This document shows positions 7,017 through 38,342 of a stretch of DNA of 39,744 nt, piece by piece. Location: contig JBFMHI010000010.1 in the NCBI GenBank assembly GCA_040753085.1, forward strand, positions 1 through 39,744, written 5' to 3'. Both the position numbers and the translations under genes were made by a program. The notes below the pieces were generated by a model that made no database searches, was not told where the DNA came from, and was given only the letters and a program-made list of their open reading frames with translations. Source of the DNA: a bacterium. GTDB lineage: Bacteria; UBA9089; JASEGY01. Numbering within the stretch: the stretch's first letter is position 1; each line of letters begins with the position of its first letter.

Positions 7017-7193
7017 GTAACTATTCAGCCACAAAGCCACGAAGAGAATAATGGAATAGCCCACGGATGACCCAGATTTTGGCGGATTCTCACGGATTTT
7101 TTTAATAAATTTTTATCCGTGTCAATCCGTTTCATCCGTGCAATCCGTGTGCTATCATTTGTAATCTTTGTGCCTTAGTGGCTGAATAGTTAC
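7017..7193. mobile_element. MITE-A copy c, 177 bp
   Basis: Perfect 16-bp terminal inverted repeats: GTAACTATTCAGCCAC at 7017-7032 and GTGGCTGAATAGTTAC at 7178-7193. The interior has repeated CACGGAT/ATCCGTG words (for example TCAATCCGTTTCATCCGTG). No target duplication visible. The rest of the gene-free stretch, 7194-7338, contains a weak inverted repeat with CGAAGTTA/TAACTTCG arms and nothing coding. Confidence 0.8.
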
Positions 7194-14271: not shown

Positions 14272-14453
14272 GTAACCGTTCAGCCACCAAGGCACAAAGA
14301 CACAAAGGGGAAAAAGTATGTGTCTTAGAGAGCAGTAGAGCAGTAGAGCAATAGAGCAGCAGTTCTGGAACCTTCGGAAAAGTCTTTAACTACTGCTCTG
14401 CTGCTCTACTGCTCTATTTTTGTGTCTTAGTGTCTTTGTGGCTGAACACTTAC
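14272..14453. mobile_element. MITE-A copy f, 182 bp, AGAGCAGT cargo
   Basis: Ends GTAACCGTTCAGCCACCAAG and GTGGCTGAACACTTAC. The arms continue as AAGACACAAAG/CTTAGTGTCTTTG. The core is a palindrome made of tandem AGAGCAGT-type units on one side and their complement on the other. An inverted, closely similar copy is at 22215-22389. No 8-bp target duplication is visible. Fills the gap between the amidase and the barrel protein. Confidence 0.8.
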
Positions 14454-21203: not shown

Positions 21204-21352
21204 GTAATTACTCAGCCACAAGGACACGAAAGCACTAAGATTACAGAAGCCATTAGGCAATAGCCAATAGGGCATTTATACCTGCTGCCTATTGCCTATT
21301 GCCTATTGGCTATTTGGCTATTGGCCCAGTGTCTTAGTGGCTGAGTAGTTAC
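21204..21352. mobile_element. MITE-A copy g, 149 bp, CTATTGGC cargo
   Basis: Ends GTAATTACTCAGCCAC and GTGGCTGAGTAGTTAC differ at one position. The arms continue AAGGACACGAAAG. The core is a palindrome of GGCAATAGCC/CTATTGGC words. No target duplication visible. It occupies the whole gap between hisA and rpoD. Confidence 0.8.
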
Positions 21353-22161: not shown

Positions 22162-22436
22162 GTATTATTCCGCCACTGATTGACACGGATTAGCGCGGAT
22201 AAAATAGAATGAGTTGTAAATGTTCAGCCACAAAGACACTAAGACACAAAAATAGAGCAGTAGAGCAGCAGACCAGTAGTTAGAGACTTTTCTGAAAGTT
22301 CCAGAACGGCTGCTCTATGGCTCTACTGCTCTCTAAGACACATACTTTTTCCCCTTTGTGTCTTCGTGCCTTAGTGGCTGAACGGTTACAAAAAAATCAG
22401 TGTTTCATCCGTGTAAATCTGTGGCTGAATAGTTAC
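22162..22436. mobile_element. Older MITE-A copy interrupted by copy h
   Basis: The left arm GTATTATTCCGCCACTGATT and the right arm, which ends ATCTGTGGCTGAATAGTTAC, are imperfect complements, with CACGGATT-type sequence in both. Between them lies the complete copy at 22215-22389. This is best read as one element inserted into an older one. The gene-free stretch 22076-22615 otherwise holds the two divergent promoters. Confidence 0.6.
22215..22389. mobile_element. MITE-A copy h, 175 bp, inverted relative to copy f
   Basis: Ends GTAAATGTTCAGCCAC and GTGGCTGAACGGTTAC. The reverse complement aligns along its length with 14272-14453, sharing AAGGGGAAAAAGTATGTGTC and the AGAGCAGT palindromic core with a handful of differences. 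Nested inside an older element. Confidence 0.8.
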
Positions 22437-28208: not shown

Positions 28209-30032
28209 ATGGGAGAGAAGAGGTTTGAGAGTCCTTTTGAGGTTAAAACCCCAGAAGGGGCGGAGGGTTGGGAGGAGATGTATCCATACTATCTCTTATT
28301 TAGTAAGGAGAGAAAGGAGACTGAGGAGGAGCGGTTTTGGTTTTGTGACACCATGCACTGGACAACCCCCCTATATCCCTTTGATATCTTTACCGCCGAG
28401 AGTGCCATGTCTGCCCTGGGTAGATATAACAGCCGGGTTTGGCTTATCCCCCCTGCCCTGGGTATAGATATAAGGGTGCTTAATGGCTTTTTTTACCTAA
28501 GCCCGATTACCGTGGATGACCCTGGTCAAATAGAAGAAAGGATAAAGGATTTTAGCCAGCGGGCAGGCTTTTATTATCAAAATTGGGAGGGATTGTATGA
28601 TAAGTGGAAGGAAAAGGTGGTAAAGGAGATAGAAGCCCTAAAGGCAATAAATATCCCTTATTTACCCGAGAAGGAGGATCTAACTAAGGTTACTGAGGCA
28701 GTGGGCATCTCCACAGGATTTTCCCTTCTATCCGCCTATAATCAGCTCCTGGAGAGTATGACCAGGATATGGGAATACCACTTTGAATTCTTGAATCTGG
28801 GTTATGCCGCCTTCCTTGATTTCTCATGTTTTATGAAGGCCGTCTTCCCAGATATCCAGGACCAGACCATCACAAAGATGGTAGCCGGCATAGATGTCAT
28901 CCTCTTTCGGCCAGATGATGAGTTAAGAAGACTTGCCAAATTAGCCGTAGGGCTTAATATAGATAAGCTCTTCTTTGAGACAAAAGACCCAAAAGAAGTA
29001 ATAGAAAGACTACAAAAGATAGAAAATGGTAGAAATTGGCTTAAAAGTTTAGAAGAGATTAAAGACCCCTGGTTCTATTTTAACTCAGGCACTGGCTTTT
29101 ACCATACCCCTTTGAGTTGGATAGATGACCTATCTATCCCCTTCTCAGGTATCTCAGGGTATATTAAAAAGTTACAAAATGAAGAGAATATAGACAGGGA
29201 TAGAGAAAGGATAATCAAAGAGGCAGAGGAATTACATAAGGGATATTTTTCCCTGTTAAGAACAGAGGAAGATAGAAATGCCTTTGTGGAAAAGTTCTCC
29301 TTAGCCAAGAGGGTATTTAGCTATGTGGAGGAGCATAATTTTTATATTGAGCATTGGCATCATACCATCTTCTGGCAAAAGATGCGCCATCTCGGGGAGA
29401 TTTTGAAAAAAGAGGGCTTCTTTGAAGAGGAGGAGGATATATTCTATCTCAATAGGTATGAGATAGCTACTGCCCTTTATGATTTATACTCCTCCTGGGG
29501 GATTGGCTTAAGTCCAAAGGGGGGACAATATTGGCCAAAGATAATCAAAAGAAGAAGGGGGATAATTAAAGCCCTTGAGAAATGGCAGCCTGCACCTGCC
29601 CTTGGCCCACCACCAGATAAGATAACCGAACCATTTACCATTATGCTCTGGGGGATTGTCTCTGAGAAGATAGAGCTTTGGCTGGAGGCACAGGATAAAG
29701 GGCAAAAAGAGGCGGTTTTAATAAAGGGTCATCCTGCCTCTCCTGGAATAGTTGAAGGAAGGGCGAGAATAATCCTCACCGCGGATGAGATTTGCGAGGT
29801 CCAGGAGGATGAGATAATGGTCTGTCCGATTACTACCCCCTCCTGGACACCTGTATTTGCAAAGATAAAAGGTGTGGTTACCAATGTAGGTGGGATGATG
29901 AGCCATGCGGCCATTATCTGCCGCGAATATGGGTTACCTGCAGTAGTAGGCACAGGCTTTGGCACTCAGTTGATCAAGACCGGGCAATGCGTAAGGATTG
30001 ATGGGAGCAAGGGAACGGTGGAGATAGTCTGA
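28209..30032 (+). CDS. PEP-utilising enzyme resembling phenylphosphate synthase alpha subunit
   Basis: 607 residues. The C-terminal phosphohistidine (PEP-utilisers mobile) domain has HPASPGIVEGRARI, TTPSWTPVFAKIKGVVTNVG and GGMMSHAAI with the phospho-accepting H566, then REYGLPAVVGTG. The N-terminal 480 residues (EGWEEMYPYY, FWFCDTMHW, LYPFDIFTAES, YHFEFLNLGYAAFLDF, KMVAGIDVILFRPDDELR) match what I know of the 70-kDa protein of phenylphosphate synthase, whose active His is near residue 569. That enzyme activates phenol with ATP in anaerobic phenol degradation. The substrate here is an inference, as no carboxylase genes are near. GGAAGAGG precedes the ATG. The ATP-binding partner follows at 30310. 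Confidence 0.8.
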   Translation: MGEKRFESPFEVKTPEGAEGWEEMYPYYLLFSKERKETEEERFWFCDTMHWTTPLYPFDIFTAESAMSALGRYNSRVWLIPPALGIDIRVLNGFFYLSPITVDDPGQIEERIKDFSQRAGFYYQNWEGLYDKWKEKVVKEIEALKAINIPYLPEKEDLTKVTEAVGISTGFSLLSAYNQLLESMTRIWEYHFEFLNLGYAAFLDFSCFMKAVFPDIQDQTITKMVAGIDVILFRPDDELRRLAKLAVGLNIDKLFFETKDPKEVIERLQKIENGRNWLKSLEEIKDPWFYFNSGTGFYHTPLSWIDDLSIPFSGISGYIKKLQNEENIDRDRERIIKEAEELHKGYFSLLRTEEDRNAFVEKFSLAKRVFSYVEEHNFYIEHWHHTIFWQKMRHLGEILKKEGFFEEEEDIFYLNRYEIATALYDLYSSWGIGLSPKGGQYWPKIIKRRRGIIKALEKWQPAPALGPPPDKITEPFTIMLWGIVSEKIELWLEAQDKGQKEAVLIKGHPASPGIVEGRARIILTADEICEVQEDEIMVCPITTPSWTPVFAKIKGVVTNVGGMMSHAAIICREYGLPAVVGTGFGTQLIKTGQCVRIDGSKGTVEIV

Positions 30033-30049: not shown

Positions 30050-30310
30050 ATGAACCACAAAAATGAGCTAATACCCCTGCATGGTGGCTACCGCAAGTTG
30101 CGCAGTTTTCAGACAGCACAGTTAGTCTATGACGCTACGGTTATCTTTTGTAATCGGTTCGTGGAGAAAGGCTCACGAACCCGAGATCAGATGATCCAGG
30201 CTGCGCGAAGCGGTGTGCAAAACATCGCCGAAGGCAGTGTAGCATCTGAGGGTGGTTTTACGGAACGGCTGTATCGAGAACGGCAAAAAAGGAGACAAAG
30301 ATCAGAATAA
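30050..30310 (+). pseudogene. Truncated four-helix-bundle suffix-domain protein
   Basis: 86 residues: GGYRKLRSFQTAQLVYDAT, FCNRFVEKGSRTRDQM and QAARSGVQNIAEGS are the first helices of this small family. The normal continuation after AEGS is replaced by about 20 unrelated residues. It splits an otherwise tight operon and is flanked by near-identical ribosome-site sequences (ACAAAAAAAGGAG before, GGCAAAAAAGGAG at its end). Its TAA overlaps the ATG of the next gene (TAATG), so translation of it may still feed the next gene. Confidence 0.7.
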
Positions 30311-31188
30311 TGTACATCCAATGGAACACAGATAAGGCTACAGATGAATTAGGAAATAAGGCAGCTAATCTTTGCCGATTAAAACAGATGGGGATAGCTG
30401 TGCCAGAAGGATTTACCCTTACTAAAAAGGCATTCTTAGACTTTGTTAGTGGTCATCAAATCAGGGAAAGGATTATGGAGTCATTATTAGGGCTTCCTTC
30501 TGATCTCCTGGCCATTAAAGAGAGGAGTCAAGACCTCTATTCCCTCTTTAATAGGTATGAGATCCCTGATAAAATAAGCAAGGAAATAACTCAGGCCTGT
30601 GAGGCTCTTAGAGGCTCTAAAGAAAAGGTCAGGTTTGCCATAAGGTCCTCAGCCGGTATTGAAGACTTAAGCTCAAGAAGCTTCGCCGGGATGTATAAAA
30701 CATTCCTCAATGTAGAGACTACGGATGAGGTCTTGAGGTGTATCAAGGGGTGCTGGCAAAGTGCCTTTAGCTTTTCTGCCTTAAGCTACATAAAGAGAAC
30801 AAACATAGATATCAAAAGAATAGAGGATACGGCAATGGCCGTGATTATTCAAAGGATGATAAAGGCTAAGTTCTCGGGGGTAATGATGACTATAGACCCA
30901 ATAACTGGCGACCCATCCAAGATCCTGATTGAATATACCGCCAGGGGTAATGTTGTCTCTGGAGAGATTACCCCAAATCGCCTCCTGGTGGATAAGATTA
31001 CCCACCAGATAGATAAAACCATTAATTCACCTGAGGCTATACTGGCTGAGGAGCATATCTTTTCTCTCCAGAATCTGGCAAAGAGGATTGAGGCGCACTT
31101 TGGTGGCTATCAGGACATTGAATGGGCGATTGATGAAGGGGTCATCATTTTACAGGCAAGGCCGGAAACGGTGTGGAGTAAGAGATGA
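30310..31188 (+). CDS. PEP synthase-like ATP-binding protein, phenylphosphate synthase beta-like
   Basis: 292 residues matching only the N-terminal ATP-grasp (PPDK_N) part of pyruvate-water dikinases: ELGNKAANLCRLKQMGIAVPEGF, RFAIRSSAGIEDL, SFAGMYKTFLNV, VIIQRMIKAKFSGVMMTIDP and DIEWAIDEGVIILQARP. It would transfer phosphate from ATP to H566 of the upstream protein, the division of labour known for phenylphosphate synthase (alpha with His, beta with ATP site). It is shorter than the 40-kDa reference. Its stop overlaps the kinase start (ATGA). The third, CBS-type subunit is not present. Confidence 0.8.
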   Translation: MYIQWNTDKATDELGNKAANLCRLKQMGIAVPEGFTLTKKAFLDFVSGHQIRERIMESLLGLPSDLLAIKERSQDLYSLFNRYEIPDKISKEITQACEALRGSKEKVRFAIRSSAGIEDLSSRSFAGMYKTFLNVETTDEVLRCIKGCWQSAFSFSALSYIKRTNIDIKRIEDTAMAVIIQRMIKAKFSGVMMTIDPITGDPSKILIEYTARGNVVSGEITPNRLLVDKITHQIDKTINSPEAILAEEHIFSLQNLAKRIEAHFGGYQDIEWAIDEGVIILQARPETVWSKR

Positions 31189-33158
31189 ATAAAGTCTACG
31201 ATGTAATCTATGAGAAGGCTAAGGGATACTGTAGGGATAACTGTGATTTGCTCCATCTAAAGAATGCCCTGGACATGGCTAAAGGCTTAGTCACAAAAGA
31301 GGGTGGGGATGAGACCATCATTCTCCCAGGCATTATCCTCCATGATGTAGGTTGGCATACCTTTTCCTTTGAAGAGGAAAAAAGGATCAGGATACCTCTC
31401 ATCACGGCGAACCTGCGGACCAGGGGCTATTCCCTTCAAAATGGAGTCTTGATTCATAGGCATGAGGTAGAGGGTGGGGCGATCGCAGAAAAAATCCTTA
31501 CAGAGCTGGATTATCCTGAAGATAAAAGGATAAAGATTATTGAGATTATCCTCGGACACGATACCCGAACCCAAGCTATTTCAAAAGAGGATATGTTGGT
31601 GAAAGACGCCGATAAGCTTTCACGATATACCAAAGAGGGCTTTTCTTCCCTGTGTGAGAAATTTAATCTTAATGAAGATGACTTCTTCAATTATATAAGG
31701 TTTAAGATAGAGAAATGGTTCTTCACCTCCTCAGCTAAGGATATGGCCAGAGAGTGTCTATTAAAAAGACAGTTGAAGATCTCTGAGCTGGCTTGGGAAG
31801 GTGGGATGAGGAGTAGATTCTTTGAGCTTCTTATCCGATTAGAGTCTGAGGTAGGTAACATAGCCAAGGAGCAGGGGCAAAAAATCCTCATAGAGGTGTT
31901 AAGACAAACCGTCTATAACCTCAAAAAGGCCATAGAGAATTATCTCTCTCTTGTGCCAAATCCAACCCTTAAATGCCTCCAGGAGGATGAGGGATTTCGC
32001 TCCTTAGTTTCCCCAGGGGTAGGGAGGACAGGCTACATCGGGATTATCGACAGAAATACCGGCAGTATCATCTTCCATCCTGACCAAGAGGTGATAAATC
32101 TACCCCTGGCAGAACTTAAAGAGAGAAAGAGACCATCCCAATATCTTTATGGCTTCTGGGATGGATTTAACCGTACCTTAAGGGGGGAGGAATTCTATTC
32201 CACCTATCAGGGGATGAATGAGTACAACGAGATAACTGATAAGCTGTGGTATGTTGTCCCCGTGGATATAAGGGGATTTAAATGGGCATTAGTAGGGGCA
32301 GGTGTCTGTGATGATTTCTTTGAACCAGTAGACATTCTAAGTCGAGATGTTCTCCAACCTATTAGCCAGGTGGCAAATCAATTCCATCATCTCCTTGATC
32401 TGGTTGATCAACAGCGGCAGGGATTAGAAAGGCTTAATGAAAGGCTTAAGCAAGAGATAATTGAGCATCAGAAGACAGCAAGAAGGCTTATTGCCGCCGA
32501 GAGATTATCCGCCATAAGCCAGATTGCGGCTGAGGCTGCCCATGAGATAAAAAACCCTTTAAGTGTGGTTAAGACCGGGGTATATTATCTATCTTCGATC
32601 TGCAAGGAGGAAAAGATAAAAAAGACACTTTCACAGATGGACAAGGCCATAGAAAGGGCAGCCTCTTATCTGAATAACCTCCTCTCCTTTTCAAGACCAC
32701 CCATACTCAAAACAACCCAGGTAGATATAAATGAGGTGATTACTGAGACATTAGGAGAGTTACCCGAAGAGGCAAAGGCAGGGGTAGAGATAGAGAAGGA
32801 TTTAGCACCTGGTCTCCCTTCTATAAGCGCTGATTCTGGGCAACTTAAGGTGGTCTTCTTAAACTTTATCAAGAATGCTATCGAGTCTATGAAGGAAGAG
32901 AAAAGGCTGGGGATTAGCACAAAAGAGGCAGAGGAAGAAGGAGCCAGATTTGTCCAGATAAAATTCAAAGATAGTGGTGTGGGTATCCCGGCTGAAGATA
33001 TAGAAAGGATATTTGACCCCTTTTATACCACCAAGTCCAAGGGCACAGGTCTGGGTTTGGCTATATGTAAGCGGATAATTGATAGCCATCAGGGAAGAAT
33101 AGAGGTAAAGAGTAAACAGGGTGAAGGAACAACCTTTACCATTAAATTGTCAATATGA
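31185..33158 (+). CDS. HD domain - Cache-like - sensor histidine kinase
   Basis: 657 residues, no membrane helices. The N-terminal HD-type domain (about 20-155) has ILHDVGWH, LIHRHEVEGG, ILGHDTR and KDADKLSRY. A Cache-like segment (about 275-385) has GRTGYIGIIDRNTGSIIFHP and GFKWALVGAGV. A coiled linker leads to HisKA with H453 in AAHEIKNPLSV, and the HATPase domain has NFIKNAIES, KDSGVGIP, DPFYTTKSKGTGLGLAI and GEGTTFTI. The HD domain on a cytoplasmic kinase is unusual. It overlaps the ATP-binding gene by ATGA and the response regulator by ATGATG, so kinase and enzyme are made together. It may sense the enzyme's substrate or product; that is an inference. Confidence 0.85.
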   Translation: MNKVYDVIYEKAKGYCRDNCDLLHLKNALDMAKGLVTKEGGDETIILPGIILHDVGWHTFSFEEEKRIRIPLITANLRTRGYSLQNGVLIHRHEVEGGAIAEKILTELDYPEDKRIKIIEIILGHDTRTQAISKEDMLVKDADKLSRYTKEGFSSLCEKFNLNEDDFFNYIRFKIEKWFFTSSAKDMARECLLKRQLKISELAWEGGMRSRFFELLIRLESEVGNIAKEQGQKILIEVLRQTVYNLKKAIENYLSLVPNPTLKCLQEDEGFRSLVSPGVGRTGYIGIIDRNTGSIIFHPDQEVINLPLAELKERKRPSQYLYGFWDGFNRTLRGEEFYSTYQGMNEYNEITDKLWYVVPVDIRGFKWALVGAGVCDDFFEPVDILSRDVLQPISQVANQFHHLLDLVDQQRQGLERLNERLKQEIIEHQKTARRLIAAERLSAISQIAAEAAHEIKNPLSVVKTGVYYLSSICKEEKIKKTLSQMDKAIERAASYLNNLLSFSRPPILKTTQVDINEVITETLGELPEEAKAGVEIEKDLAPGLPSISADSGQLKVVFLNFIKNAIESMKEEKRLGISTKEAEEEGARFVQIKFKDSGVGIPAEDIERIFDPFYTTKSKGTGLGLAICKRIIDSHQGRIEVKSKQGEGTTFTIKLSI

Positions 33159-33169
33159 TGGGGGGAAGA

Positions 33170-34090
33170 ATGGCTAAGATCTTGATTGTTGATGATGAAC
33201 CGGATTTGGGGGAGATATTGAAAGATACCCTTGAGATTAAAGGCTATGAGGTAGATGTTGTCTTAGATGGTTATCAAGCTATGGCTCAGATAAAGAAGAC
33301 CCACTATGACCTGACCTTAATGGATGTTAGATTGCCTGGGTTAAATGGGGTAGAGACATTCCTTCGAATTAAGGAAATAGATCCCTTAGTCAAGGTGATT
33401 ATGATGACGGGTTTTGCTATGGAGGATTTGATAGAGGAAGCATTAAAACAAGGGGCTTATGCCTGTCTTAATAAGCCATTTGACCTGGGAAAGACAATAA
33501 AATTGATCGAGAAGGCTATCTACGAGAACCACAAGGTTATCTTGATTGGTAACTACTCAGCCACCACATATTGATTTTGAAGCTTACAGAACACAATATA
33601 TTGTGGTTCGTCTCCTTTTATAGGTTGCATAGAAAGCCGTTTTTTAGGAATTTTAGCTAACTTTTAAACACCTAAACACAATATGTTGTGGTTTCGCTAG
33701 GTAAGGCTACTATATAGAGGCTGAGTAGTTACCTTGATTGTTGACGATGAGGAGGGAATAAGAGAGAATCTCTTCAATATCCTCAAAGAAAGGGGTTATT
33801 TGGTCTGTTTGGCTAAGGATGGAGAGGAGGCATTGATGAAGATCAGAAATAGTTCATATCATTGTATCATCCTTGATATTAAACTTCCCAAGATAGATGG
33901 GATTACGGTTTTAAAGGAGGCAAAAAGGATAGACCCTAAGGTTATAGTCATTGTAATTACCGGGTATGACCTGCCCTATTTGCTCAAGGAGGCAAAGAAC
34001 TTGTCTGCCTATGCCTGCCTTAGAAAACCCATTGATATTGCCCAACTGTTGAGTTTGATAGAGGAAGCGAGCGGATATGCTTATCAGTAA
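33170..34090 (+). pseudogene. Tandem-receiver response regulator split by a MITE
   Basis: Receiver 1 (33170-33547) starts MAKILIVDDEPDLGEIL, with phospho-Asp in LTLMDVRLPG and Lys in LNKPF. It now reads into the inserted element and stops at 33574 after IGNYSATTY. Receiver 2 (33734-34090) starts IVDDEEGIREN, with phospho-Asp in IILDIKLPK and LRKPI. Removing 33549-33732 plus one copy of CTTGATTG joins them in frame as one 242-residue protein. The ATG at 33170 is chosen over 33155 because GGGGGGAAGA precedes it. Receiver 1 alone is probably still made and phosphorylated by the upstream kinase; receiver 2 has only a TTG and no clear ribosome site. Confidence 0.88.
33549..33732. mobile_element. 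MITE-A copy l, 184 bp, inserted in the response regulator
   Basis: 14-bp perfect ends GTAACTACTCAGCC and GGCTGAGTAGTTAC. The 8-bp target CTTGATTG is duplicated at 33541-33548 and 33733-33740. The interior has CACAATATATTGTGG-type palindromic words and no coding capacity. This is the clearest insertion in the window. Confidence 0.95.
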
Positions 34091-34388: not shown

Positions 34389-34487
34389 ATTGAAGATATC
34401 TTCTCCATATTTCGGAGGACAGTAGTGAGAGTTGAGAGCTGAGACCTCTCCGTTCTCCACCCTCGGCTCTTAGAAATGAGGCAAAAA

Positions 34488-36374
34488 ATGCCGACTGGTG
34501 ATAGGCATAAATCACGAGTTACTCTCGGGATGTTTGGCGGCAAAGGTCAAATATATTCCATGCCGTTGAAGTTGCTTGTTCTGTCAGAGTTGACTCCCCG
34601 TGACATTCAGACTGGAATATCATCTGACAGGCTTCAGCGGGTTCGGATTAACAAGGATAATTTCAATGAGGTAATGGAACAATTCAACCTTCGAGTTGTT
34701 CTGGAGATACCGAACCGTCTGGCTGATGCCCCCCAAGACCTTCTTATAGAGTTGTCCCTTGAGAATATCAAGTCCTTTCGACCGGAAGCTATTGTGGAGC
34801 AGGTAACGGAGCTAAGGGATTTGTGGCGAATCAGGCAACTACTGGTTGACTTGCGGGAGCGAAAGGTTTCGCGGCGTGAGGTTCAGCAGTGTCTTAGTGA
34901 TTGGAGGGGCAGTTCGGCGCTGCGGGAGCAAATTAAGATGGCTCTGTCAACCTCGCCGGCCGCGCCTCAACCAACTCGAGCGCCTTCTCAACCCTCGAAG
35001 GTTAAACCGCCCACATCTAAGGATGCCCTCGACACACTCTTCGATATGGTCGAGGTACCGGAGACATTAAGTAAGCCCGCCCCATCCCCACGGCCGGTGA
35101 GTTCCACTCTGGGTGAGGTGATCTCCCTCATTGCAGGTAGTCAGCCATCGGAGGAGCCAGTGAATGCCCAAGCAGTGGCGGCGGTAATTGCCGATCTCGA
35201 CGCTACTCTGAGTGCGCCGGTTAATGAGATCCTTCATCATCCTGAGTTTCGTCGATTAGAATCTGCATGGCGAGGGCTGAAATTTCTGGTTGACCGGACC
35301 GACTTTCGGGAGGATATCCAAATCGAAGTCCTCAGCCTTTCCAAGGATTCCTTAAGCCGCACCTTTGATGAATACATCTTTCAACCGGAATACGAGAAAA
35401 TAACTGACGCCTCTGTCTCGGTTATCATCGCCGACTACGAATTTGACAATTCACCGCCGGATATTGATCTGCTTAGAGAACTATCGGAAAAGGTTGAGAG
35501 GCTTCAGACCCCCTTTATCTCTTCCATTGGGCCATCCTTCTTTGTGTCCCCATCCGCCATCCCAGGCACCCACGAAGTGGGTGCGCCATCCGCCATATTT
35601 GAGGGTCCTGAGCACATCAAGTGGAAGGGATTTCGCCGGACTGAATCCTCCCGCTGGCTCGCCTTGGTCTTTAACCGATTTCTATTGCGTCTTCTTTATG
35701 GGGTGGAAGGAAATCGGGTAAAGGTTTACCAGGCCGGCTCGGCCTTCGATTTTCAAGAGGAGACTGAATACCTTTGGGGCAATCCGGTCTGGGCCTTAGC
35801 CAGTCTGCTGACAGCCAGCTTTGCCAGGACAGGCTGGTGCACCCAAATAATCGGTGTCCGTTATGGTGCGATTGAGAATCTGCCGGTCTGGGAATACCCA
35901 CGGCGAAACAGCCACGAAAAGGTGAGTATGCCCCTCGAATTCCTTCTGCCCGAGCAAAAGCAATCAGATCTGGCCGAGAACGGGATCATCGCCCTTACTT
36001 GCCGGGTTAATTCTGATGCAGCCATTGTCTTTTCCGCCCCCACGGTTCATCTGCCTGAGCGTTACGCGGAGGCGGCTGAAAGCCTCAAGAGTGTCCGGCG
36101 GGCGGCCCTTTCATATCAATTGTTCGCGAGTCGGATTACTCACTATGTGGAACGGATTCAAGGTGAGATCATCCCGGGAAATACACCAGAAGGCATAAAG
36201 AGCGATTTGGCGAGGGCGCTAAGCGCCTTTATCGGCAAGCAAGGCGAAGTGGCGGCTGAGATGGTTGAAAGCGAAGAACAGCCTGGCTGCTATGAACTTG
36301 TCCTTTCTATTTTACCAGGACGGGAAATTATGCCGGAAGGGACTGAGCTGGAATTGAGGCTGCGAATCAGGTGA
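34488..36374 (+). CDS. T6SS contractile sheath TssB-TssC fusion
   Basis: 628 residues. Residues 1-150 are TssB/VipA-like (LVLSELTPRD, NFNEVMEQFNLRV, SFRPEAIVEQVTEL). A Pro/Ser-rich linker follows (150-215), then TssC/VipB (HPEFRRLESAWRGLKFLV, LTASFARTGWCTQIIG, GIIALTCRVNSDAAIVFSAP, ALSYQLFASRITHYV). The two sheath proteins are normally separate genes. Residues 355-368 (PSAIPGTHEVGAPS) are the 42-bp palindromic insertion, in the loop before GPEHIKWKGFR. The ATG at 34488 is chosen because GAGG lies 6 nt upstream; an ATG at 34476 lacks one. TssK follows after a decayed hicBA; other T6SS genes are absent here. Confidence 0.85.
   Translation: MPTGDRHKSRVTLGMFGGKGQIYSMPLKLLVLSELTPRDIQTGISSDRLQRVRINKDNFNEVMEQFNLRVVLEIPNRLADAPQDLLIELSLENIKSFRPEAIVEQVTELRDLWRIRQLLVDLRERKVSRREVQQCLSDWRGSSALREQIKMALSTSPAAPQPTRAPSQPSKVKPPTSKDALDTLFDMVEVPETLSKPAPSPRPVSSTLGEVISLIAGSQPSEEPVNAQAVAAVIADLDATLSAPVNEILHHPEFRRLESAWRGLKFLVDRTDFREDIQIEVLSLSKDSLSRTFDEYIFQPEYEKITDASVSVIIADYEFDNSPPDIDLLRELSEKVERLQTPFISSIGPSFFVSPSAIPGTHEVGAPSAIFEGPEHIKWKGFRRTESSRWLALVFNRFLLRLLYGVEGNRVKVYQAGSAFDFQEETEYLWGNPVWALASLLTASFARTGWCTQIIGVRYGAIENLPVWEYPRRNSHEKVSMPLEFLLPEQKQSDLAENGIIALTCRVNSDAAIVFSAPTVHLPERYAEAAESLKSVRRAALSYQLFASRITHYVERIQGEIIPGNTPEGIKSDLARALSAFIGKQGEVAAEMVESEEQPGCYELVLSILPGREIMPEGTELELRLRIR
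35550..35591 (+). repeat. In-frame palindromic coding element, copy 3 (in tssBC)
   Basis: 42 bp = 14 codons, PSAIPGTHEVGAPS, with an 8-bp stem GCACCCAC-GAA-GTGGGTGC. Same frame and orientation as the copies in oppD and mfd. Only this copy adds a second CCATCCGCCAT word at its right side (35586-35596), echoing its left end. Confidence 0.88.
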
Positions 36375-36968: not shown

Positions 36969-38342
36969 ATGCCATCCTATCCCAAGATCGTCTGGAACGA
37001 GGGGATGTTTCTTACCCCCCAGCATTTTCAGCGATGGGACCATTATCATGAGAATCTCCTTGATTTTCGGATGAGGTCTATTATGCCGCTGGGTTGGGGG
37101 TTAAGGGATCTGAAAATAAATCAAGAGGCTCTGGAGAATGGCAATTTTATCCTGGTATCCTGTCAGGGGATACTTCCAGGAGGCACATCCGTTGATATTC
37201 CGAATACGGATGAGTCGCCGGTAAGTCGACCAATTGAAAAACATTTTGGCCCGTCTCTGAGCGCCCTTGACGTGTATTTAGCCATCCCTGTAGAACGGCC
37301 AGGAAAGGCAAGCTGTTCCCTCGAAAGCAGGAAAGGCCCTCTGGAAACGCGATATTACAGGGAATTTGTGCGGGTAGTAGATGAAAACACCGGCGAGGCC
37401 GGGAATGAGCAGGAGATTCCGGTAGCTAAAAAGAATCTGAAGATTCTCTTTGGCGGAGAGTCCCTGGATGATCACGACTGCCTTAAGATTGCTGAATTAG
37501 GTCGATCTCCGAGCGGCGTTATTGTTCTGCGGGATGACTATATCCCGCCCTGTATAGCTATTTCTGCCTCACCGCCATTAATGAAGATGCTTGGCCGCCT
37601 GATGGAGGTGCTTACCACCAAAAGCAATGAACTGTCAGAGCAGTTCCGCCAAAGGGAGAGCGGCTTGTATGAATTTGGGGCAGCCGATATTTCCAATCTC
37701 TGGTTCCTGCATACCATTAATTCCTTTATCCCGGAAGTTTATCATTTTTATCGTATGTCGGGGGTCCATCCGGAAAAACTCTTCCGTCTTCTTTTGCGCT
37801 TTGCCGGAACCATAACGGCCTTTAATGCCCATATCCGGCCGATGGACTTGCCTGGCTATGACCATAAAAATCCGGCGTCTTGTTTTGGTTATCTTGACAA
37901 GGTAATTCGGGAATTCTTACAGATGCTGGCCCCCGTTACCATGTATAAATTGATCCCCTTGAGAAAAGTTAGCGAATCCGTCTACGAGGCAGGCATAGAT
38001 GATTATCTATTTACCCCTTCCTACAGATTTTATTTGGCGGTCAAGGGGGAAGGGAGTCAGAGAGATTTGATTGAGGGAATCTTGCAAAGGGCGAAAATCG
38101 CTTCGGCCGGAGAAATTAATCTGCTCATTGGCAAGGCCCTGCGAGGTATTAATCTTATTCATTTGCCCTCCCCACCAGCGGCCATTCCCAAGAGATCAGG
38201 ATATTCTTATTTTAGCCTGGACTTGCGGGGGGATTATTGGGCCAATATTCAGCAGTCGAAATCTTTGGCTATTTATATCCCTCCCGGGTTTACGAAGGTG
38301 GAATTGGAATTGATGGCGGTGGAAGAAATGGGTGGGAAATGA
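36969..38342 (+). CDS. tssK: T6SS baseplate protein TssK
   Basis: 457 residues. The hallmark N-terminus is IVWNEGMFLTPQHFQRWDHY, then MPLGWGLRDLKINQEAL and GGTSVDIP. The middle contains FLHTINSFIPEVYHFYRMSGVHPEKLFRLL (partly quoted), and the C-terminal domain has SYFSLDLRGDYWANIQQSKSLAIYIP. In a T6SS, TssK links the baseplate to the membrane complex. GAGG precedes the ATG at a suitable distance. With tssBC it forms an isolated pair of T6SS genes. Confidence 0.9.
   Translation: MPSYPKIVWNEGMFLTPQHFQRWDHYHENLLDFRMRSIMPLGWGLRDLKINQEALENGNFILVSCQGILPGGTSVDIPNTDESPVSRPIEKHFGPSLSALDVYLAIPVERPGKASCSLESRKGPLETRYYREFVRVVDENTGEAGNEQEIPVAKKNLKILFGGESLDDHDCLKIAELGRSPSGVIVLRDDYIPPCIAISASPPLMKMLGRLMEVLTTKSNELSEQFRQRESGLYEFGAADISNLWFLHTINSFIPEVYHFYRMSGVHPEKLFRLLLRFAGTITAFNAHIRPMDLPGYDHKNPASCFGYLDKVIREFLQMLAPVTMYKLIPLRKVSESVYEAGIDDYLFTPSYRFYLAVKGEGSQRDLIEGILQRAKIASAGEINLLIGKALRGINLIHLPSPPAAIPKRSGYSYFSLDLRGDYWANIQQSKSLAIYIPPGFTKVELELMAVEEMGGK

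What the first reader, a model, noticed from the sequence alone, without database searches (positions are those of the whole stretch)
33541..33740. Recent MITE insertion splits a tandem-receiver response regulator; excision restores one exact frame
The 184-bp element has 14-bp perfect terminal repeats and a perfect 8-bp duplication (CTTGATTG). Removing the element and one duplication gives ATC TTG ATT GTT GAC GAT, that is ILIVDD, fusing two complete receivers into 242 residues. This proves mobility, fixes the element's borders, and shows the ancestral gene. Today only receiver 1 has a good start.
Basis: seen in the sequence. Interest (0 to 1): 0.85.

Follow-up and report, generated by a model that had tools for sequence, protein, structure and literature searches.

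The report
IS66-type MITE splitting tandem-receiver gene
A short, recently copied jumping-DNA element, present in 20 or more near-identical copies in this genome, has landed between the two halves of a two-receiver signalling gene and split it; this is a clear, well-documented example of a familiar kind of event, in a genome unusually full of such elements.

Summary
Thirteen complete copies in the genome are 100% identical, each flanked by its own perfect 8-bp duplication; broken copies at contig ends add at least nine insertions. A sister species carries an 85-91% identical family. Uninterrupted double-receiver genes occur in ten other genomes of the phylum; the two closest (70-71% identity) follow the same histidine kinase. 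So the window's gene was one 242-residue tandem receiver, now split. The mobilising system is most likely of the ISBst12 group of IS66: ISDge4 has near-identical ends and an 8-bp duplication, and IS66-type transposase genes in phylum-mates lie between GTAACYRYTCAG-type ends. No IS66 transposase lies in this bin, but a longer three-copy element with the same ends does, its interior lost in assembly. "Proves mobility" holds for past transposition only; precise excision was not tested. Insert plus duplication is 192 bp, a multiple of 3, so in-frame stops, not a frameshift, split the gene. Ordinary kind of event; the phylum's MITE load is the more notable part.

The parts
33549..33732 (+). 184-bp MITE, non-coding
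   Evidence: 13 complete 100% identical copies in the genome, each with its own 8-bp duplication
33549..33562 (+). left terminal inverted repeat GTAACTACTCAGCC
33719..33732 (-). right terminal inverted repeat (GTAACTACTCAGCC on the minus strand)
33541..33548 (.). left copy of the target-site duplication CTTGATTG
33733..33740 (.). right copy of the target-site duplication CTTGATTG; contains the TTG start of the remaining ORF for receiver 2
33590..33693 (.). two near-identical internal palindrome-like repeats (33590-33608 and 33675-33693) that pair with each other in the folded element; largely kept in the sister species' copies
33155..33574 (+). receiver 1 ORF (139 aa), ending in residues coded by the element
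   Evidence: PF00072 E 2e-29
33734..34090 (+). receiver 2 ORF remnant (118 aa, TTG start)
   Evidence: PF00072 E 2.6e-25
31185..33158 (+). HD-domain histidine kinase directly upstream, overlapping the receiver gene start; same order in G013 and G018

Best explanation
A non-autonomous miniature element with IS66/ISBst12-type ends was copied in trans by an IS66-family DDE transposase, inserted and duplicated 8 bp of target. Here it landed at the start of the second receiver of a tandem-receiver response regulator encoded just after its histidine kinase. Stop codons carried by the element end the protein after receiver 1. Receiver 2 is left behind the element's hairpin with only a TTG start from the duplicated target, so it is probably lost or weakly made. 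Shown: the insertion, its borders, its dispersed identical copies, and the ancestral fusion. Inferred: the IS66-type transposase as mover, and the effect on expression.
For: 13 identical complete copies with 13 different perfect 8-bp duplications and at least nine more insertions at contig ends, four of them re-paired by their duplication. Sister-species family at 85-91% with its own duplications. Full-length uninterrupted orthologues in ten genomes, two with the same upstream kinase. Mover: IS66 transposase genes lie between inward-facing GTAACYRYTCAG-type ends in L106, L108 and L109; ISDge4 of the ISBst12 group has ends GTGACTACTCAGCA / GTAACTGCTCAGCA and an 8-bp direct repeat (PMC12898284). 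A longer three-copy element with the same ends exists in this genome, two copies re-paired by 8-bp duplications.
Against: No IS66 transposase in the bin or in the sister genome, and the interior of the longer element is not seen. The phylum-mates' IS66 elements do not show matching 8-bp repeats at their flanks. The MITE shares only about 14 terminal bases with the longer element. Expression of either receiver is unknown.
Confidence: 0.85

Rival explanations
1. The element is a MITE, but a transposase of a family other than IS66 that also makes 8-bp duplications moves it.
For: No IS66 gene in this bin; the interior of the longer element with the same ends is unread.
Against: Ends match the ISBst12 group of IS66, and IS66 genes in phylum-mates lie between ends of this type. 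The two DDE_Tnp_1 genes of the genome lack such ends as a bounding pair.
Confidence: 0.12
2. The split is productive: the duplicated target gives receiver 2 its own TTG start, making two single-domain regulators from one gene.
For: Both receivers keep the acidic pair, phospho-acceptor Asp, Thr and Lys; a 118-aa ORF opens at the border.
Against: TTG start without a well-placed Shine-Dalgarno, preceded by a strong hairpin, and the start clips the first residues of strand beta-1. Intact residues are expected anyway after a recent insertion.
Confidence: 0.12
3. The two receivers were always separate genes, and the CTTGATTG copies are similar gene starts (both begin ILIVDD) rather than a target duplication.
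For: CTTGATTG also occurs at the start of receiver 1 (33181).
Against: All 13 complete copies have 8-bp duplications of unrelated sequence; ten relatives have one fused gene.
Confidence: 0.01

Closest known systems
ISBst12 group of the IS66 family (ISDge4 of Deinococcus geothermalis, PMC12898284)
   Same: Near-identical ends (GTAACTGCTCAGCA against GTAACTACTCAGCC) and an 8-bp duplication on insertion.
   Different: ISDge4 is autonomous, with a 449-aa transposase; this element has no gene and is 184 bp long.
MITECca01 of Cardinium cOegib (PMC9769881)
   Same: Short non-coding element of high copy number in one bacterial genome, thought to be moved by a parental IS.
   Different: About 240 bp, IS982-derived, 169 copies; mostly in intergenic regions or other mobile elements.
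MITEPsy1 of Pseudomonas syringae (PMC3189936)
   Same: Short bacterial MITE with terminal repeats and target duplication.
   Different: 100 bp, 4-bp duplication, few copies; its mobility was shown by experiment.

Membership tests
MITE | short (under about 300 bp), no transposase gene, terminal inverted repeats | tested here: met
   184 bp, 14-bp perfect ends, no ORF of 80 aa or more inside it
MITE | multiple dispersed copies with target-site duplications | tested here: met
   13 of 13 complete copies with different perfect 8-bp duplications
MITE | shares its ends with an autonomous element present in the genome | tested here: inconclusive
   a longer three-copy element shares the ends, but its interior is not in the bin
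IS66 family, ISBst12 group (as mobiliser) | GTAA-type ends and 8-bp target duplication | tested here: met
IS66 family, ISBst12 group (as mobiliser) | single-ORF DDE_Tnp_IS66 transposase between these ends | tested here: inconclusive
   found in phylum-mates (L106), not in this bin
tandem-receiver response regulator (ancestral gene) | two receiver domains in one ORF in orthologues | tested here: met
   ten genomes with full-length stop-free hits; both halves are PF00072 in the window

The most novel reading that the evidence does not exclude
A MITE insertion carried out a productive gene fission: the duplicated target donates the start codon of a new single-domain response regulator, uncoupling two receivers that follow one kinase.
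Probability: 0.1. Interest if true: 0.5.

Novelty: new member of a known kind. Interest (0 to 1): 0.3.

Why it matters
It gives an exactly bordered, recent MITE insertion with a known ancestral gene, ties a large MITE superfamily of a little-sampled phylum to IS66/ISBst12-type ends, and explains part of the fragmentation of this assembly, since many contigs end inside copies of it.

Tried and rejected
Rfam scan of the region: nothing. IS66 transposase in own and sister genome: none. DDE_Tnp_1 genes as mover: not bounded by matching ends. Interior of the longer element sought in viral contigs and in the 19 phylum genomes held: only end fragments in G000 and G001. The MITE in plasmids: no match. 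The orthologous site in the sister species: kinase and receiver gene both absent at the thresholds used. A first fuzzy-match script timed out; one protein alignment was spoiled by wrong strands and redone.

Full report
Observation. The sequence is as described. The element is 33549-33732, exactly 184 bp, with 14-bp perfect inverted ends and CTTGATTG on both sides. In-silico removal of the element plus one repeat joins the halves into a 242-residue protein from MAKIL, or 247 from the ATG at 33155. Element plus duplication is 192 nt, a multiple of three. What splits the gene is stop codons carried by the element (33572-33574 and one just before the right border).

The element is mobile DNA. The window is the whole of contig C10 of a 3.05-Mb, 250-contig genome bin. 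The genome holds 13 complete copies, all 100% identical to the window copy, and all 13 have a different perfect 8-bp repeat at their borders (12 printed; the 13th, on C79). Thirteen further matches are truncated at contig ends after about 121-131 bp, as expected where a short-read assembly breaks in a repeat. Six left halves and seven right halves include four pairs with identical 8-bp flanks (C173/C174, C69/C67, C91/C125, C168/C141). By their flanks these are nine further insertions, 22 in all. The only other genome of the genus that is held (G001) has its own family at 85-91% identity; nine of ten copies read have perfect 8-bp duplications and one appears to have a 10-bp one. Perfect identity within this genome and divergence from the sister point to recent, separate expansions (inference). 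The 13 target sites average 28% GC against 47% in a 365-kb sample of the genome. The element folds into one long hairpin (-54.4 kcal/mol, z -4.57), as its end-to-end inverted symmetry would give.

The gene was one gene. Both halves are Response_reg domains. Full-length, stop-free double-receiver ORFs were found in ten other genomes of the phylum. The two closest (G018, G013; 71 and 70%) also have a 60% identical kinase directly upstream, as in the window. All align through the junction, in the window ...ENHKVILIVDDEEG... and in L070 ...ENRPTILIVDDDEG.... Three named public records also carry the full-length gene (L027-L029). The sister species G001 lacks both kinase and receiver at the thresholds used, so no same-genus empty site could be read.

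What moves it. The ends read GTAACTACTCAGCC. A 2026 paper on Deinococcus geothermalis describes ISDge4, an ISBst12-group IS66 element with ends GTGACTACTCAGCA and GTAACTGCTCAGCA and the 8-bp direct repeat CCTCGATG (PMC12898284). In phylum-mates, IS66 transposase genes sit between inward-facing ends of this type: L106 (540-aa frame with PF03050, DUF6444 and a sub-threshold zf-IS66), L108 and L109. Their flanks do not show matching 8-bp repeats, so they may be old. The own bin has no PF03050 hit. It does have a longer element with the same ends, seen as three copies of one end (C93, C109, C175) and three of the other (C159, C207, C156), nearly all at contig ends; two copies rejoin by their 8-bp duplications (C109/C159 and C93/C156). 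Its interior is not in the bin, as expected for a multi-copy element that collapses in assembly. It is my candidate parent, unproven. The MITE shares little beyond the terminal 14 bases with what is visible of it, so a simple internal-deletion origin is not shown.

Load. The pattern GTAACYRYTCAGSY occurs 655 times in this genome against 0 for the pattern read backwards, over 100 times in G001, G009, G013, G015 and G018, and hardly at all in the six genomes outside the phylum. Sub-families with variant ends and 8-bp duplications occur across the sampled contigs.

Function after insertion (inferred). Receiver 1 keeps a complete domain with a short foreign tail. Receiver 2 keeps its catalytic residues, but its only usable upstream start is the TTG inside the duplicated target, behind a strong hairpin. 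Loss or strong reduction of receiver 2 is most likely; productive fission cannot be excluded.

Verdict. Real and correctly read; a known kind of event (MITE disruption of a gene) with unusually complete evidence. The MITE load of the phylum is the more interesting side.

Noticed in passing
window 7017-7193, 14272-14453, 21204-21352, 22216-22389: Four other MITE-sized pairs of related ends (GTAAYYRYTCAGCC type) in the window without clear duplications, apparently older sub-families; genome-wide 655 exact termini.
   Followed up: partly
L086, L087, L098 (one end); L088, L089, L153 (other end): A longer three-copy element with the same ends, broken at contig ends; two copies re-pair by 8-bp duplications, interior missing from the bin.
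   Followed up: partly
window 34476-36374: One 632-aa ORF carries both T6SS VipA and VipB sheath domains, followed by a VasE/TssK-like gene (36969-38342): a fused sheath protein in a type VI secretion-like cluster.
   Followed up: no
L072-L077, L082 (orthologues of the double receiver): In many relatives the second receiver has lost its acidic pair and phospho-acceptor Asp (e.g. LIANGDS, LLNL), so it looks like a pseudo-receiver there, while the window's copy keeps them.
   Followed up: no
L140:1501-1685: One sister-species copy is flanked by a 10-bp instead of an 8-bp direct repeat (TAATATTTAT).
   Followed up: no
L084 (G003:C79): A second double-receiver gene in G003 appears frameshifted near residue 175.
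   Followed up: no
window 28209-30032 and 30310-31188: PEP-utiliser mobile domain and PPDK_N ATP-binding domain lie on two separate ORFs upstream of the kinase, a split PEP-synthase-like arrangement.
   Followed up: no
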